Assembly (NCBI GenBank): GCA_949299165.1
Contig: CASFZJ010000007.1
Coordinates: forward strand, 1-58,085
Direction of reading: 5' to 3'
DNA: 58,085 bases
DNA from: an uncultured bacterium
GTDB lineage: Bacteria; Bacillota_I; Bacilli_A; RFN20; CAG-826
Position 1 is the stretch's first letter, and each line of letters starts with the position of its first letter. The notes under the pieces are model-generated. The model did no database searches. It was not told the origin of the DNA and saw nothing but the letters and a program-made list of their open reading frames with translations. The position numbers were made by a program, and so were the translations under genes. Shown here in pieces: positions 43,816 to 52,452 of this stretch.

Positions 43816-44230
43816 TTTTCTTCCTCCTAAATAAGAATAGACTTCTTATAAATCATAGGAGTTTTCATGTTTCTCTATTAAGTATTGCCAACGAATACTT
43901 TTGTTTTGTGTAGTCCTTAATTTTGGTTTAAGGGTAGAGACGTAATCACCATATCTAGATTACTTATACACGAAACCCGATTGATTTATCGCTTATATTA
44001 AATAATAATTGGAAGCAAAAATATATAACAAAATTCAAAAGTTTTTGTGAAAACACTTTCATATTATTTTCACATTAAAAAAGTAAAAATAATGTTTTAC
44101 AAGATGAAAAATTGGTATAAAATAACTTAAAGTTTTTCACAAAATCCAAAATTAAGATAATATTAACAAATTGTAAATTTTTCCTAGGAAATTTTATCAA
44201 AAATCCTAGGAATTTTTATTAACTAAAAAT
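43816..44230. other. leader and intergenic region of the nucleoside operon
   Basis: Holds the riboswitch (43908-43971), a hairpin AAGTATT/AATACTT at about 43880-43900 that may be its expression platform, a cre-like TGAAAACACTTTCA at 44048-44061, and two CCTAGG palindromes (44183-44188, 44205-44210) at the lipase gene end. No gene is seen. Confidence 0.5.
43908..43971 (-). ncRNA. guanine-class purine riboswitch
   Basis: The three-helix aptamer is complete on the minus strand: P1 GTGTA/TACAC, P2 GTAATC/GATTAC closing a loop with GATATGG, the J2/3 CTCTACC, and P3 CCTTAA/TTAAGG. The J3/1 strand reads GGACTAC, with C at the ligand-pairing position (74), which specifies guanine/hypoxanthine over adenine. 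Its only evident target is the nucleoside-binding lipoprotein and importer operon, so uptake would be shut off by purine. Confidence 0.88.
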
Positions 44231-46698: not shown

Positions 46699-47946
46699 AT
46701 GGAAAATTGGATTGCAGTCATAGATTTGAAAGCATATTATGCGACATTTGAATGTGTAGAGAGAGGACTCGATCCTTTTACTACCCCTTTAGCTGTGACT
46801 GACACCGAAAGAAAAGGTGCTACTATTGTTTTAAGTGTTTCACCATATTTAAAAAGTTTAGGCGTGCCTTCTAGACTCAGAAGAAGAGATCTTCCAAAAA
46901 ATATTCCTGGAATGATTTATGCTAAGCCACAGATGGAAAAATATGTGAAAAAAAGTGCCGAAATAGTGTCGATTTTTTTAGATTTCATAGGAAAAGAAGA
47001 TTTACATGTCTATTCAATCGATGAATCTTTTTTAAATATTGGACCTTATTTAAAACTATATAAAACTACTCCGTATGAATTATGTAAAAGAATATTGGAA
47101 AGAATCCATAAGCAAACAGGACTCACTGCGACTTGTGGCATTGGACCAAATATGTTTCTTGCGAAGATGGCTGATGATAAAGAAGCTAAAAATGCCAAAG
47201 ACTTTATCGCAATCTGGGATTATAAAGATGTGCCAGAAAAACTCTGGCCACTTAAACCTTTAAGTGAAATGCGGGGAATTTCAAGAGGCTTTGAAACAAG
47301 ACTTAATAAGTTAGGTTTATATACTGTTTATGATGTTGCTCATTATGAAAAAGCCTTATTAATCGAAAAATTTGGAATAATGGGTGAAGATATATATGAA
47401 CATGCTAACGGAAGAGATGAAAGTAATATCAGAGATAAATATATACCAGTAAACAAGAACCTATCACTTGGACAGGTTTTAATGAGAGATTATACAGTTA
47501 AAGAAACACGCCTTGTTTTAAAAGAAATGTGTGATGAATTATGTATTCGATTAAGACAAACTCATTTAAAAGCAACAGGAGTATCCTTGATGATTCGCTA
47601 TTCTTTCACTTCTAACTTACCTCCTTTCGCTCATCAACTACATCTTGAAGCAACCGATTTAAATAGTGATTTATTAAAAGCAATTCTTTATTTATACGAT
47701 ACTTATATTGAGGATGGATTTATTAGACAAATTGGTATTTCATATGGTGGTTTAGTTGAAGAAAAAAATGAACAATTATCCATATTTAAAAACCTTGAAG
47801 CGGTAGATAAGGAAAGAAATCTTTACCACGCACTTGATGAAATATCCAAAAAATATGGAAAAAATAAAGCTTTAAAAGCAACTAGTTTATTAAAAGAATC
47901 AACTATAAAAGAACGACACAATCAAATTGGTGGACATCGCCGTTAA
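46699..47946 (+). CDS. Y-family DNA polymerase (UmuC / UvrX-like)
   Basis: Translesion polymerase, 415 residues. AVIDLKAYYATFECVERGLD at the start (metal Asp), YSIDESFLNI (Asp-Glu pair), CGIGPNMFLAKMAD, and a clamp-binding peptide EQLSIF near residue 372. This matches the UvrX/YqjW class more than DinB. No LexA box (CGAAC-N4-GTTCG) and no ribosome site is seen; TATAAG lies 11 bases before the ATG, so a leaderless mRNA is possible. Confidence 0.87.
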   Translation: MENWIAVIDLKAYYATFECVERGLDPFTTPLAVTDTERKGATIVLSVSPYLKSLGVPSRLRRRDLPKNIPGMIYAKPQMEKYVKKSAEIVSIFLDFIGKEDLHVYSIDESFLNIGPYLKLYKTTPYELCKRILERIHKQTGLTATCGIGPNMFLAKMADDKEAKNAKDFIAIWDYKDVPEKLWPLKPLSEMRGISRGFETRLNKLGLYTVYDVAHYEKALLIEKFGIMGEDIYEHANGRDESNIRDKYIPVNKNLSLGQVLMRDYTVKETRLVLKEMCDELCIRLRQTHLKATGVSLMIRYSFTSNLPPFAHQLHLEATDLNSDLLKAILYLYDTYIEDGFIRQIGISYGGLVEEKNEQLSIFKNLEAVDKERNLYHALDEISKKYGKNKALKATSLLKESTIKERHNQIGGHRR

Positions 47947-48096
47947 ATTTTTATAAACAATTTTAAAAAAATAGTAAAATTTTTTTATTTTAAATAATAC
48001 GCATTTTATCGAGTTTTCTTTGTGTTTATAAAAAATATTTTAATTTTTTGTGAAAATTTTTTAACATTTTTCGAAATGACCTCCTTCGTATTAAGT

Positions 48097-48146
48097 GAAA
48101 GGGTATAAAGTGGACAAATAGCCAAATTCACTTTAAGTAAACTTTC
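48097..48146 (+). other. left-end hairpin of the TnpB element
   Basis: GAAAG/CTTTC and TAAAGTG/CACTTTA (48106-48112 with 48129-48135) nest around a 16-base loop, like the subterminal hairpins TnpA binds. Confidence 0.5.
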
Positions 48147-48158
48147 ATCTAAAAATAT

Positions 48159-48180
48159 AAGGAGGTTTTCAATGTAGTAA
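48159..48180 (+). other. Shine-Dalgarno followed by ATG-TAG-TAA
   Basis: AAGGAGGT, five bases, then ATG TAG TAA: a start codon next to two stops. A second AAGGAGGT 48 bases on serves the tnpB TTG. Confidence 0.6.
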
Positions 48181-48224
48181 TTTGCTTTTAACAAACTAAT
48201 TAACACAAGGAGGTACTCAATAAA

Positions 48225-49562
48225 TTGCAATACATTTACATCGCTCAAAAGGTTTCTCTGAAACCTAACAAGGCTGCAGATATGGTTTTATCCCAACTCT
48301 TCGGTGCAACTCGATTTATTTACAACTTCTCATTAGAGAAATTTTATAAATCGATAGAAGAGACTGGAGAAATCTTGTCTTCAGGAAAATTAAAAAATCA
48401 TTTTCTCTTAAATCGTTATAAATTTGATTTTTTAAAAGACTTATATCATGAAACGACAGATAAAGTCTTTGATAATTTGTCCAAAGGAATAAGAATATAT
48501 AAAGAAGAAATGCAAAAAAATCATTCTTTTAAATTGAAATTTAAGAAAAAATATTTAGACAATTCGTTCTTTGTTTATGGAAGTCGCGTTAAAATTATCG
48601 AAAAGGTGACCAGTAAAAGAAAATTCATTTATTTTGATGGATTAAGTGAACCAATCAAAATAATGGACAAATTACGTTTTGATGCGCCAATTGTTTCTGT
48701 CACTTTTAAGAAAGACCATAAAAAATATTACGCTTCTATTCTTTATAGACTTAGCAAAACTAAATACGAACAATCTCATAAATTCTCTTTCTTAAGAAAC
48801 AATAAGTTCATCGGAATTGATTTAGGGATAAGTAAAACCTTAACTACTTCTGCAGGATTAGTAATAGATACACCATTATTCCTAGAGAAAGCTAAGAAAA
48901 AACAAAAACGTATGAGTCGAGCTTTAACAAGAAAAGTCTGCACTAAAACTGAAAATGGTGAGACTATTGAGTCTAAAAATTACCAAAAGTATGTTTTAAA
49001 AATTGCAGAATTTCATAATAAAATCACAAACAAAAGGAAAGATTATATTAAGAAACTTTCCTCAGTTTTAGTTCGCAATTTTGAAGGTATTTGCATGGAG
49101 GATTTAGACGTTAAATCACTTCAACAAAATAAACACTTCGCTAAAAAGGATATTGATTTAAATTTCTACGAATCATCAGAAACTATTAAAAAGAAAATGG
49201 ATTCTATTGAAGGACGCATATTTTTAAGAGCGGATCGATATTATCCAAGCACAAAAAGATGTTATAAATGTGGATATATTAAAGAAAGTATGCTTTTAGG
49301 CGATAGAGTTTACCGTTGTGAAAATTGCGGAACTATTATTGAAAGAGATTTCAATGCAGCTTGTAATCTCTTTAAATACATGAAATCAATCATAGGGCGT
49401 GGAACGTCCAATTTAAAGTCTGCGGAGAAAGAAAAAATCTCAAAAGATTGCGTTAACAATAATTTGAGATTTTATTTCGTTGAACCAGAAAATGTTGTTA
49501 ATTTAACTAACTATAATAATCAAGTTAGTAAGAATAAATTAATGGCAGCTCCACATATTTAA
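48225..49562 (+). CDS. tnpB: TnpB RNA-guided nuclease
   Basis: 445 residues starting at TTG 48225 with AAGGAGGT ten bases upstream. RuvC catalytic acids are all present: Asp in FIGIDLGISKTLTTS (~198), Glu in GICMEDLDVKSL (~290), Asp in ERDFNAACNLF (~385). The zinc ribbon is CYKCGYIKES and YRCENCGTI. The N-terminal part is the wedge/REC region. TnpB cuts DNA at sites named by its omega-RNA next to a short target-adjacent motif and helps retain the element. It seems intact. Confidence 0.93.
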   Translation: MQYIYIAQKVSLKPNKAADMVLSQLFGATRFIYNFSLEKFYKSIEETGEILSSGKLKNHFLLNRYKFDFLKDLYHETTDKVFDNLSKGIRIYKEEMQKNHSFKLKFKKKYLDNSFFVYGSRVKIIEKVTSKRKFIYFDGLSEPIKIMDKLRFDAPIVSVTFKKDHKKYYASILYRLSKTKYEQSHKFSFLRNNKFIGIDLGISKTLTTSAGLVIDTPLFLEKAKKKQKRMSRALTRKVCTKTENGETIESKNYQKYVLKIAEFHNKITNKRKDYIKKLSSVLVRNFEGICMEDLDVKSLQQNKHFAKKDIDLNFYESSETIKKKMDSIEGRIFLRADRYYPSTKRCYKCGYIKESMLLGDRVYRCENCGTIIERDFNAACNLFKYMKSIIGRGTSNLKSAEKEKISKDCVNNNLRFYFVEPENVVNLTNYNNQVSKNKLMAAPHI

Positions 49563-49656
49563 TTTTTAAATATTAGTACGGCGGGTTACGTCGAAATTGA
49601 AGGCTGCGGAGTTCACAAAGGTCTAATTTAATTAGGCGAACTATGAAACAGCAAAA
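49391..49656 (+). ncRNA. candidate omega-RNA (TnpB guide RNA scaffold)
   Basis: It overlaps the tnpB 3' end and runs to the right end, as in related elements. GGGCGT/ACGTCC (49395-49400 with 49404-49409, one G.U) forms a tight hairpin inside tnpB; GTTC/GAAC (49611-49614 / 49638-49641) with inner CTAAT/ATTAG (49623-49627 / 49631-49635) forms the 3' stem-loop. The guide would start just after this, near GATGTAAATGTATT (49657-49670). Confidence 0.55.
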
Positions 49657-49674
49657 GATGTAAATGTATTCCTA

Positions 49675-52452
49675 TTATTTGCTAATTTTTTTATGAAGGT
49701 ATCTAATCAAAACAATAACTTCATGAATTATTAATGGAATAATAGAGAATCCTATCGTTATCAGCCATTCACTCCAGTCAAGGTTAGCTGTTGTGAATAA
49801 AGTTTGTACCCCAGGAGTCTCAATAACGAAGAGTTGCAAGATAATACCTACAGCGAATGCGACTAACATCATCCAGTTTTTGTCTTTAAAAACATGGACA
49901 AAACTTCTGTTTACATCTGACATTCCAACCATATGGAAGAGTTCAGAGAAAGCCAACGTGGTAAACGCCATAGTTTGAGCTTGGTGTAAAATATCTGGAT
50001 TATTTGCATATAAATTTTTAATTGCCATAAAATCAGATGCACCATGTAACCAACCACAACTAAAGTAAGAGATTAAGACACCAATAGTAAGAATAGCACC
50101 ATATAAGAGTGTATTCTTCATTCCACCTTGAGCGAAAATACCTTCTTTTGGATCTCGTGGTTTTTGTTCCATAATGTGAGGATTTACTGGATCCATACCT
50201 AGCGCGATAGCTGGTAATGAGTCAGTTAATAAATTAACCCATAATAAGTGAATTGCGATTAATGGAGCTGGTAAACCAAGACAAATAACAACAAACATCG
50301 CTAATACTTCGGCAATATTACTACTTACTAAGAAAATAACAGTCTTTTTAATATTAGCGTAGATACCTCTACCTTGTTCACAAGCTTTTTCAATCGAAGC
50401 AAAGTTGTCATCGGTCAAGACCATATCAGCCGCGCCCTTGGCGACATCGGTGCCTGTGATACCCATAGCAATTCCAATATCAGCTCCCTTTAATGAAGGA
50501 GCATCATTGACGCCATCACCAGTCATAGCGCAAATATTCCCATTTGCTTGGAAAGCTTTGACAATTTGAATTTTGTTTTCAGGTGAAACACGAGCAAAAA
50601 CTCTTGTTGTTTTGCAAGCTTCTTGAAGTTGTTCTGGAGAAAGTCCATCGACTTCGGATCCCATTAAACATTGGCTGATATCGTTTGCTATTCCTAAATC
50701 TTTAGCAATAGCAAAAGCAGTATCTTTATGATCTCCAGTAATCATAACAGTAGTAATACCTGCTTGTTTGAACTTTTCAACAGCTGGTTTAGCTTCCGGA
50801 CGAGCAGGGTCAATCATAGCAGTTAAGCCAACAAAGATAAGATCCTTTTCTTCTATTTGATCTTTATTTGTATAAGCTAATGCTAAAACTCTTAAAGCCT
50901 TGTCAGAGAAATATTTATTAGCATTGTTAATTTTTTCAATATCTTCTTTAGTAATATCTCTTTCAGTACCACGATCTAAAATCTTAACAGTTCTAGAAAG
51001 AATTGAATCTAAAGCGCCTTTTGTATAAATAATTGTTTTACCATCTGTTTTAGTGTGTTTTGTAGACATCATTTTTCTCACGCTGTCAAATGGTAATTCA
51101 TCTACTCTAGGTGTTCTACCTTCTAAGAAAGATTTATGTAAATCAAATTCATTAGCAAAAGCAACTAATGCAATTTCAGTTGGGTCACCATATAAACCTT
51201 CATCAACTGTAGCATTACTGCATAAAGACATACCTTCCGCTAATAACAATAAATCTTTATTATCACTATCTTTTTTAAAGTCGTCTTTGACATAATATTT
51301 ATCATCAGCATAAGCTTCAACTACTGTCATTTTATTTTGTGTTAAAGTTCCTGTTTTATCAGAACAAACAACACTAACAGCACCAAGGGTCTCAACACTA
51401 TTTAATTTTCTAACAACTGTGTTGACCTTAACCATTTTTTGAACACCAATTGAAAGAACGATTGTAACAACAGCAGCCAAACCTTCAGGAATTGCAGCGA
51501 CAGCTAATGCAATTGAAGATAAAACAGCTTCAATCCAAGCTTCAACTTCACTACCATTGCCATCAACGAAGATCCAAATAACATCGACAATGAAAACTGC
51601 GACAACAACGATTAATGTAATAAGACCTAAAATCTTTGATAAATTATCTAATGCTTTTTGAAGTGGAGTTTCAACATCTTCTTCTTCATCTAATGCAGTA
51701 GCGATTTTACCAATTTGTGTGTTCATTCCAGTTTCTACGACAACACCCATTCCTCTCCCATAAGTAACAGGAGTTGACATAAAAGCCATATTTACTCTAT
51801 CACCAATTGCGACAGTATCAGAAAAAACAATAGATGAATCTTTTTCAACTGGCACAGATTCTCCAGTTAAAGATGATTCATTAACTTTTAAATTTACGGC
51901 TTCAATGAGTCTTAAATCAGCACCAATTGTATCGCCTTCTTCTAAAATAACGATATCGCCTGGCACTAAATCAGCTGATTTAACTTTAAATCTTTTTCCG
52001 GCTCTTAGAACAGTACTTTCTGGGGAAGATAAATTTTTAAGTGCTTCAAGAGAAGTTTGAGCCTTAACTTCTTGAACTGTTCCAATGACTGAATTCATTA
52101 AAATAACAGCAAGAATGATAATAACATCTGGCCAGTCACCAACATTAAAGAAATCAAATCCTTTCATGATAGTTTCATAAATTGAAATACCAATCGTTAC
52201 TGCAATTGCAGCAAAAAGAACGTAAATCATCGGATTTTTCAATTGTTCAAAGAAAATTTGAATCCGAGTTTTCTTTTTCTTTTCTTCTAATTTGTTAGGG
52301 CCATACTTTTCAAGTCTAGCCTTTGCTTCTTCATCGCTTAATCCAGTAGAAAAATTTGTTTCAAGTTTTGTTTCAAGATCTTTTGCTGAAAAGGTTTCGA
52401 AATTTACAACTTCTTTTTTATTTTCTACTATTTCACTTTGCTTAGTACCCAT
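49675..52452 (-). CDS. P-type cation ATPase (PMCA/PacL type, likely Ca2+ or Mn2+)
   Basis: 925 residues. SSLTGESVPVEKD (actuator), VCSDKTGTLTQNKMTVVEAY (phosphorylated Asp), TGDHKDTAFAIAKD and TGDGVNDAPSLKGAD are complete. Membrane ligands: AAIPEGLAAVV in M4, SSNIAEV in M5, NLLTDSLPAIALG in M6, which match Ca2+ pumps. N-terminal cation-ATPase domain starts near residue 18 (FETFSAKDLETKLETNFSTG). A yybP-ykoY riboswitch upstream suggests Mn2+ control. Confidence 0.93.
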   Translation of the reverse strand: MGTKQSEIVENKKEVVNFETFSAKDLETKLETNFSTGLSDEEAKARLEKYGPNKLEEKKKKTRIQIFFEQLKNPMIYVLFAAIAVTIGISIYETIMKGFDFFNVGDWPDVIIILAVILMNSVIGTVQEVKAQTSLEALKNLSSPESTVLRAGKRFKVKSADLVPGDIVILEEGDTIGADLRLIEAVNLKVNESSLTGESVPVEKDSSIVFSDTVAIGDRVNMAFMSTPVTYGRGMGVVVETGMNTQIGKIATALDEEEDVETPLQKALDNLSKILGLITLIVVVAVFIVDVIWIFVDGNGSEVEAWIEAVLSSIALAVAAIPEGLAAVVTIVLSIGVQKMVKVNTVVRKLNSVETLGAVSVVCSDKTGTLTQNKMTVVEAYADDKYYVKDDFKKDSDNKDLLLLAEGMSLCSNATVDEGLYGDPTEIALVAFANEFDLHKSFLEGRTPRVDELPFDSVRKMMSTKHTKTDGKTIIYTKGALDSILSRTVKILDRGTERDITKEDIEKINNANKYFSDKALRVLALAYTNKDQIEEKDLIFVGLTAMIDPARPEAKPAVEKFKQAGITTVMITGDHKDTAFAIAKDLGIANDISQCLMGSEVDGLSPEQLQEACKTTRVFARVSPENKIQIVKAFQANGNICAMTGDGVNDAPSLKGADIGIAMGITGTDVAKGAADMVLTDDNFASIEKACEQGRGIYANIKKTVIFLVSSNIAEVLAMFVVICLGLPAPLIAIHLLWVNLLTDSLPAIALGMDPVNPHIMEQKPRDPKEGIFAQGGMKNTLLYGAILTIGVLISYFSCGWLHGASDFMAIKNLYANNPDILHQAQTMAFTTLAFSELFHMVGMSDVNRSFVHVFKDKNWMMLVAFAVGIILQLFVIETPGVQTLFTTANLDWSEWLITIGFSIIPLIIHEVIVLIRYLHKKISK

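What the first reader, a model, noticed from the sequence alone, without database searches (positions are those of the whole stretch)
48225..49670. Guide-side arm of the TnpB element is complementary to its own tnpB start
GATGTAAATGTATT (49657-49670), right after the predicted omega-RNA 3' stem-loop, is the exact reverse complement of AATACATTTACATC (48229-48242), codons 2-6 of tnpB just after the TTG start. If it is the beginning of the guide, the RNA could pair with the tnpB mRNA start and damp translation, or the repeat could mark element ends. A 14-base perfect match is unlikely by chance but possible in AT-rich DNA.
Basis: partly seen in the sequence, partly recalled or inferred. Interest (0 to 1): 0.7.

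Follow-up and report, generated by a model that had tools for sequence, protein, structure and literature searches.

The report
Competence-linked TnpB with self-matching guide
The reported 14-letter match between a TnpB guide RNA and the start of its own gene is real, but only one sister species shares it and it is about as likely a coincidence as a regulatory device; the larger result is that TnpB genes and guide RNAs in this bacterium share a promoter with the DNA-uptake (competence) genes, which appears not to have been reported.

Summary
In detail: GATGTAAATGTATT (49657-49670) is the exact reverse complement of 48229-48242, codons 2-6 of tnpB, and these are the only two copies in the 1.43 Mb genome. 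A random 22-mer has a match of 14 or more to the tnpB start about once in 12,000. The one orthologue (same locus, 92% aa) keeps 13 of 14 bases. All other related elements lack it (6-8 nt), and another guide/tnpB pair in the genome shows a 14-nt AT-rich coincidence. RNA energetics are not specific in the window. I judge chance (about 0.5) slightly ahead of RNA-level feedback (0.3) and DNA-level self-targeting (0.12).

The surroundings are more interesting. This tnpB, the other tnpB genes and all omega-RNA loci found in the genome (several stand-alone) carry one promoter, TTTAAC-N20-TCGTANTANRTGA (28 sites, 0 in control), shared with recA, comEA-comEC, a comFA-like gene and dprA. In a relative whose competence promoter has diverged, the tnpB promoters diverged with it. 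These are TnpB/omega-RNA units of a late-competence regulon, probably guarding their loci during transformation (inferred).

The parts
48060..48098 (+). late-competence-type promoter TTTAACATTTTTCGAAATGACCTCCTTCGTATTAAGTGA, with an A/T-rich region upstream (about 48010-48059)
   Evidence: 28 sites genome-wide, 0 in the reversed control; the same element lies upstream of recA, comEA-comEC, comFA-like and dprA
48092..48224 (+). tnpB leader, 3% divergent from the sister species against 16% just upstream
48172..48177 (+). start-stop mini-ORF ATGTAG after its own Shine-Dalgarno (AGGAGG 48160-48165); related leaders have ATGACTTAG or ATGACTTAA
48207..48213 (+). Shine-Dalgarno AAGGAGG of tnpB
48225..49562 (+). 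tnpB, 445 aa, RuvC residues D199, E292, D375 and zinc ribbon intact
48229..48242 (+). 5' arm AATACATTTACATC (tnpB codons 2-6)
49388..49499 (+). second omega-RNA-like match inside the tnpB 3' coding region (E 1e-6)
49572..49652 (+). omega-RNA scaffold; closing helix GCTG 49603-49606 / CAGC 49649-49652 with compensatory changes across 7 sequences
49655..49674 (+). guide segment up to the ATPase stop codon; starts at about 49655-49656
49657..49670 (+). 3' arm GATGTAAATGTATT, exact reverse complement of 48229-48242
49675..52452 (-). convergent P-type cation ATPase gene whose stop codon abuts the guide
46699..47946 (+). DinB-like polymerase gene; the dinB/ATPase convergent pair is the ancestral neighbourhood into which the tnpB unit came

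Best explanation
The locus is a stationary TnpB/omega-RNA unit transcribed from a late-competence-type promoter. The transcript carries a structured leader, tnpB, and an omega-RNA scaffold whose guide is simply the DNA between the scaffold and the stop codon of the neighbouring ATPase gene. The first ~15 guide nucleotides happen to be antisense to tnpB codons 2-6. Shown: the match, its uniqueness, the scaffold/guide border to about 3 nt, intact catalytic residues, the promoter shared with competence genes, and 13/14 retention in one orthologue. Inferred: the match itself is fortuitous, kept because both segments are conserved for other reasons (leader and protein start on one side, guide seed on the other), and the unit works as an ordinary RNA-guided nuclease switched on with competence, most plausibly protecting its own locus from replacement by element-free alleles during transformation.
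For: Other family members do not share the match: own-guide antisense matches are 6-8 nt in L002, L006, L003, L028, L013, L024 and L032. A second, clearly fortuitous 14-nt guide x tnpB match exists in the same genome (C11 guide x tnpB of C2, AT-rich). The window has 8 inverted matches of 14 or more within 3 kb, 4.4 expected. The 5' arm encodes the family's conserved YIYIAQKV start, so it is protein-constrained. The 3' arm lies outside the scaffold, where guides are flanking DNA (Nety et al., PMC10278001). 38-nt stretches without any change occur in 6% of tnpB windows, so retention of the arm is not exceptional. Own-pair co-folding energy for the window (-13.2) is within the range of swapped pairs (-6.3 to -17.0). 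Competence context.
Against: The position-specific chance is small (8e-5 to 5e-4). Both arms survive in the sister species while the sequence just beyond the 3' arm changed by substitution and indel. The leader plus codons 1-15 are unusually conserved (4 changes in 179 nt against 7-16% around). The global minimum-energy fold of the 1.6 kb transcript includes the pairing, and the bipartite duplex in the orthologue is strong (-42.1 kcal/mol, z -5.4).
Confidence: 0.5

Rival explanations
1. RNA-level negative feedback: the guide end of the tnpB/omega transcript, or of a processed omega-RNA, pairs with codons 2-6 just downstream of the start codon. This blocks ribosome loading, and conversely the mRNA start occupies the guide so that the nuclease is held back while tnpB mRNA is abundant.
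For: 14 bp (13 in the orthologue) inside the initiation footprint with a weak TTG start; the 5' arm is unpaired in the local fold, and the pairing appears in the global minimum-energy fold; the orthologue's own-pair interaction is much stronger than most swapped pairs (-16.9 against -2.6 to -11.2 with other elements' starts). Precedent: a region of AmaTnpB mRNA inhibits its RNP, with mRNA/omega-RNA pairing proposed (PMC10278001).
Against: Not conserved outside the orthologous pair; not specific for the window in co-folding; no compensatory change to test; AU-rich duplex of only about -15 kcal/mol; the guide is flanking DNA, so such a match would have to evolve after insertion.
Confidence: 0.3
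2. DNA-level self-targeting: the TnpB-omega-RNA complex recognises its own tnpB start (guide nt ~2-15), binding it as a roadblock or nicking it, as an autorepression or self-limiting device.
For: The only other occurrence of the guide seed in the genome is the tnpB start; a Deinococcus TnpB uses only the proximal 12 guide nt (PMC10278001); TldR proteins show that the fold can work as an RNA-guided repressor (PMC13418256); the sequence 5' of the site reads TTTTGAGC, which contains a TTGA motif.
Against: The TAM of this family is unknown and could not be derived; guide nt 1(-2) would be mismatched, at the TAM-proximal end; the RuvC triad is intact, so targeting would cut the chromosome rather than repress; no other family member targets itself.
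Confidence: 0.12
3. The inverted match marks element ends or derives from an inverted duplication between the two ends of the unit.
For: Two collinear 5-bp helices (GUUUC/GAAAC, CCUAA/UUAGG) continue the pairing inward.
Against: Sequence similarity of the adjoining 32-nt stretches is no better than random (P 0.87-0.89); the 5' arm lies inside the ORF 169 nt downstream of the start of the promoter; related units have no such ends.
Confidence: 0.03

Closest known systems
IS200/IS605-type TnpB with omega-RNA (ISDra2 TnpB, AmaTnpB)
   Same: TnpB fold and catalytic triad, omega-RNA scaffold downstream of tnpB, guide outside the scaffold
   Different: No tnpA seen and no defined transposon ends; vertically kept at the same dinB/ATPase locus in two species; competence-type promoter; stand-alone omega-RNAs under the same promoter
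AmaTnpB mRNA cis-inhibition of its RNP (Nety et al. 2023, PMC10278001)
   Same: Proposed pairing between tnpB mRNA and its own omega-RNA giving negative feedback
   Different: There the inhibitory region is mRNA nt 825-875 and is proposed to disrupt the scaffold; here the mRNA start would pair with the guide
TldR nuclease-dead TnpB repressors (PMC13418256)
   Same: Domesticated TnpB with a fixed genomic neighbourhood and short guide matches near gene starts
   Different: TldR is nuclease-dead and represses other genes (fliC); this protein keeps D199/E292/D375
Long-form tracrRNA (tracr-L) autorepression of Cas9 (from memory, not found in the library)
   Same: An RNA of the system with a short match to its own effector's control region
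   Different: Cas9/CRISPR; the match is in the promoter and regulation is experimentally shown
Late-competence (ComX/SigX) regulons of Firmicutes
   Same: One promoter type in front of recA, comEA-comEC, comFA and dprA
   Different: Different promoter sequence (TTTAAC-N20-TCGTANTANRTGA); includes tnpB genes and omega-RNAs; the sigma factor was not identified here

Membership tests
TnpB RNA-guided nuclease (IS200/IS605 group) | TnpB domain architecture and RuvC D/E/D with zinc ribbon | tested here: met
   Pfam PF01385, PF07282, PF12323; NF040570 176 bits against cut-off 100; D199, E292, D375 and CxxC motifs invariant in 9 relatives
TnpB RNA-guided nuclease (IS200/IS605 group) | omega-RNA scaffold directly 3' of tnpB | tested here: met
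   RNAalifold helices with compensatory changes; CM hit 86 bits, E 1.5e-19 (the window sequence is in the model, but omega loci outside the alignment were also found at G000:C17 and in G012 and G009)
TnpB RNA-guided nuclease (IS200/IS605 group) | mobile element with tnpA and recognisable ends | tested here: not met
   No transposase ORF between dinB and the ATPase gene; same locus in two species
TnpB RNA-guided nuclease (IS200/IS605 group) | TAM-dependent, guide-directed cleavage | not testable with these tools
   needs biochemistry; the TAM could not be inferred because empty sites are too diverged
Late-competence regulon | promoter shared with the DNA-uptake and recombination genes | tested here: met
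   recA, comEA-comEC, comFA-like, dprA and tnpB share TTTAAC-N20-TCGTANTANRTGA; in G009 the tnpB promoters follow the diverged comFA/recA promoter
Late-competence regulon | induction of the transcript during competence | not testable with these tools
   no expression data; competence of this uncultured lineage is itself inferred
mRNA/omega-RNA autoregulation | complementarity conserved by compensatory change across relatives | tested here: inconclusive
   arms identical in one orthologue (13/14), absent elsewhere
TldR repressor | inactivated RuvC | tested here: not met
   catalytic triad intact

The most novel reading that the evidence does not exclude
A host-kept, competence-induced TnpB system: several TnpBs and stand-alone omega-RNAs are switched on with DNA uptake and cut element-free alleles brought in by transformation, so that their loci resist replacement. 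The window copy additionally limits itself through pairing of its guide with its own mRNA start.
Probability: 0.2. Interest if true: 0.85.

Novelty: new variant of a known kind. Interest (0 to 1): 0.55.

Why it matters
TnpB is thought to act when its element is lost from a locus, but when the nuclease is switched on in nature is little known. Placing tnpB and trans omega-RNAs in the DNA-uptake regulon would tie RNA-guided cutting to the moment when transformation can erase mobile elements (the conflict described in PMC4774983), which is directly testable. The self-complementarity would, if functional, be a TnpB counterpart of effector autoregulation by its own RNA; at present it is a lineage-specific lead.

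Tried and rejected
Inverted-duplication origin: adjoining stretches are no more alike than random. Native ATPase 3' flank as the source of the 3' arm: relatives without tnpB lack it, but this intergenic DNA is too diverged to decide. TAM from the left end: the conserved 'left end' turned out to be the competence promoter, and the empty site of the C17 unit in G019/G009 is too diverged. More relatives: none in viral contigs, only one close orthologue among 224 genomes of the family and in the genome collection. Conserved self-targeting in other TnpB units: none. A paper search linking TnpB to competence found nothing relevant in the open-access library; subscription papers and preprints are not covered.

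Full report
Observation. The 5' arm covers codons 2-6 of a TTG-started 445-aa TnpB. The match is rare for its position (P 5e-4 for leader/start x 3' region; 8e-5 for a random 22-mer against the 200-nt start). It is not rare as a mere repeat: 8 inverted pairs of 14 or more within 3 kb, 4.4 expected.

Anatomy. The unit sits between two convergent genes, dinB and a P-type ATPase, which are neighbours in several relatives without tnpB. The guide runs straight into the ATPase stop codon. Aligning scaffolds of related units gave a consensus with a closing helix (alignment columns 33-37/82-86) supported by compensatory changes. In the window this is GCUG 49603-49606 with CAGC 49649-49652. Other units continue AA(G) and then their guide. 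In the stand-alone pair G000:C6/G012:C77 the sequences diverge immediately after GCAAGAAG.

Conservation. The sister genome G012 (the same genome as L005/L012) has the orthologous unit at the same locus with 92% protein identity. Both arms are kept for 13 bases, and the sequence beyond changes at once. The leader plus codons 1-15 show 4 changes in 179 nt against 7.4% in the rest of tnpB and 16% upstream. A 38-nt unchanged stretch on the 3' side is not exceptional (6% of tnpB windows). Guide conservation between sister units varies: kept here, in L003/L028 and mostly in C11/C80, not in C6/C77, partly in C2/C22. No other unit has an own-guide match to its tnpB start above 8 nt, and one unrelated guide/tnpB pair has a 14-nt AT-rich coincidence. 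G009 has a TnpB next to the same ATPase gene, with a different left flank and no match.

Energetics. The duplex of the two arms is -15.0 kcal/mol and is part of the global minimum-energy fold of the transcript. Against shuffles the 100-nt regions score z -3.7 (window) and -5.4 (orthologue); these scores include the arm itself. With swapped partners the window interaction is unremarkable, while the orthologue's is specific.

Protein. D199, E292 and D375 are invariant in nine relatives, so this is not a TldR-type dead repressor.

Competence promoter. The conserved block upstream of tnpB is one of 28 genome copies of TTTAAC-N20-TCGTANTANRTGA, with none in the reversed control. Genes directly downstream include recA, comEA followed by comEC (Pfam/NCBIfam), a comFA-like helicase and dprA. 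The same element or a close variant precedes this tnpB, the tnpB genes of C1, C2 and C15, and the stand-alone omega-RNA units C6, C11, C14, C17 and C2b. G012 has 21 sites, and other genus members have none or one. In G009 three tnpB genes carry TTTAAAAA...AGTAATCNCCNTCTANATANTGA, and the comFA gene and, more loosely, recA of that genome carry the same variant. A promoter consensus that diverges in step in competence genes and tnpB genes is strong evidence of common regulation; induction itself was not tested.

Stand-alone omega-RNAs. A covariance model found 6 scaffold loci in G000, 4 in G012 and others in G009. The G000 units C6, C11, C17 and C2b have no tnpB of their own, so guides may act in trans with the TnpBs. 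The model also matches inside the 3' coding part of tnpB (49388-49499), suggesting that the C-terminal extension grew over an older scaffold (inference).

How it probably works. During competence the promoter drives leader-tnpB-omega-RNA. TnpB, with its own or stand-alone omega-RNAs, would recognise the flank joined to a TAM, that is, the allele without the unit. Transformation tends to delete insertions (PMC4774983), so expressing the nuclease then would protect the unit. This is inference from anatomy and from known TnpB retention biology (PMC10278001). The self-match may be chance (0.5), RNA-level feedback (0.3), for which AmaTnpB mRNA inhibition is a precedent, or DNA-level self-targeting (0.12), which needs a TAM at TTTTGAGC that could not be evaluated.

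Verdict. The regulatory reading is possible, lineage-specific and unproven. The competence-regulon setting is the more robust and more interesting result.

Noticed in passing
window 48060-48098 and 27 further sites (L090-L117): One promoter type (TTTAAC-N20-TCGTANTANRTGA) in front of recA, comEA-comEC, comFA-like, dprA, transporters, tnpB genes and omega-RNAs: an apparent late-competence regulon with an unusual promoter.
   Followed up: yes
L105, L107, L111, L113, L115 (G000 C11, C14, C17, C2, C6): Stand-alone omega-RNA-like units without tnpB under the competence-type promoter, several with a start-stop mini-ORF ATGACTTAG or ATGACTTAA in the leader.
   Followed up: partly
L099, L100, L102, L103, L112 (about 100-250 nt downstream of the promoter): Five loci encode similar ~26-aa hydrophobic peptides with charged tails (e.g. 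MEVVFILLLLVILVKEIKKSDNDENR) after a mini-ORF, resembling small membrane toxins or competence-linked peptides.
   Followed up: no
window 48160-48177: Start-stop mini-ORF (ATG TAG) with its own Shine-Dalgarno in the tnpB leader; analogous ATG ACT TAG/TAA in L002, L006, L032 and stand-alone units.
   Followed up: partly
window 49388-49499: omega-RNA covariance model also matches inside tnpB 3' coding sequence here and in G012 and G009, suggesting a duplicated scaffold now read as protein.
   Followed up: no
L079, L085, L108-L110, L116-L117 (G000:C15:30214-30743): Five tandem copies of the competence-type promoter upstream of one tnpB gene; L032 in G009 has a similar tandem array of the variant promoter.
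   Followed up: no
L013/L008 (G009:C59): A 45%-identical TnpB beside the same ATPase gene in another species but with a different left flank: repeated insertion at one site or rearrangement.
   Followed up: partly
window 43891-43991 (-): Purine riboswitch (Rfam RF00167, 52.9 bits).
   Followed up: no
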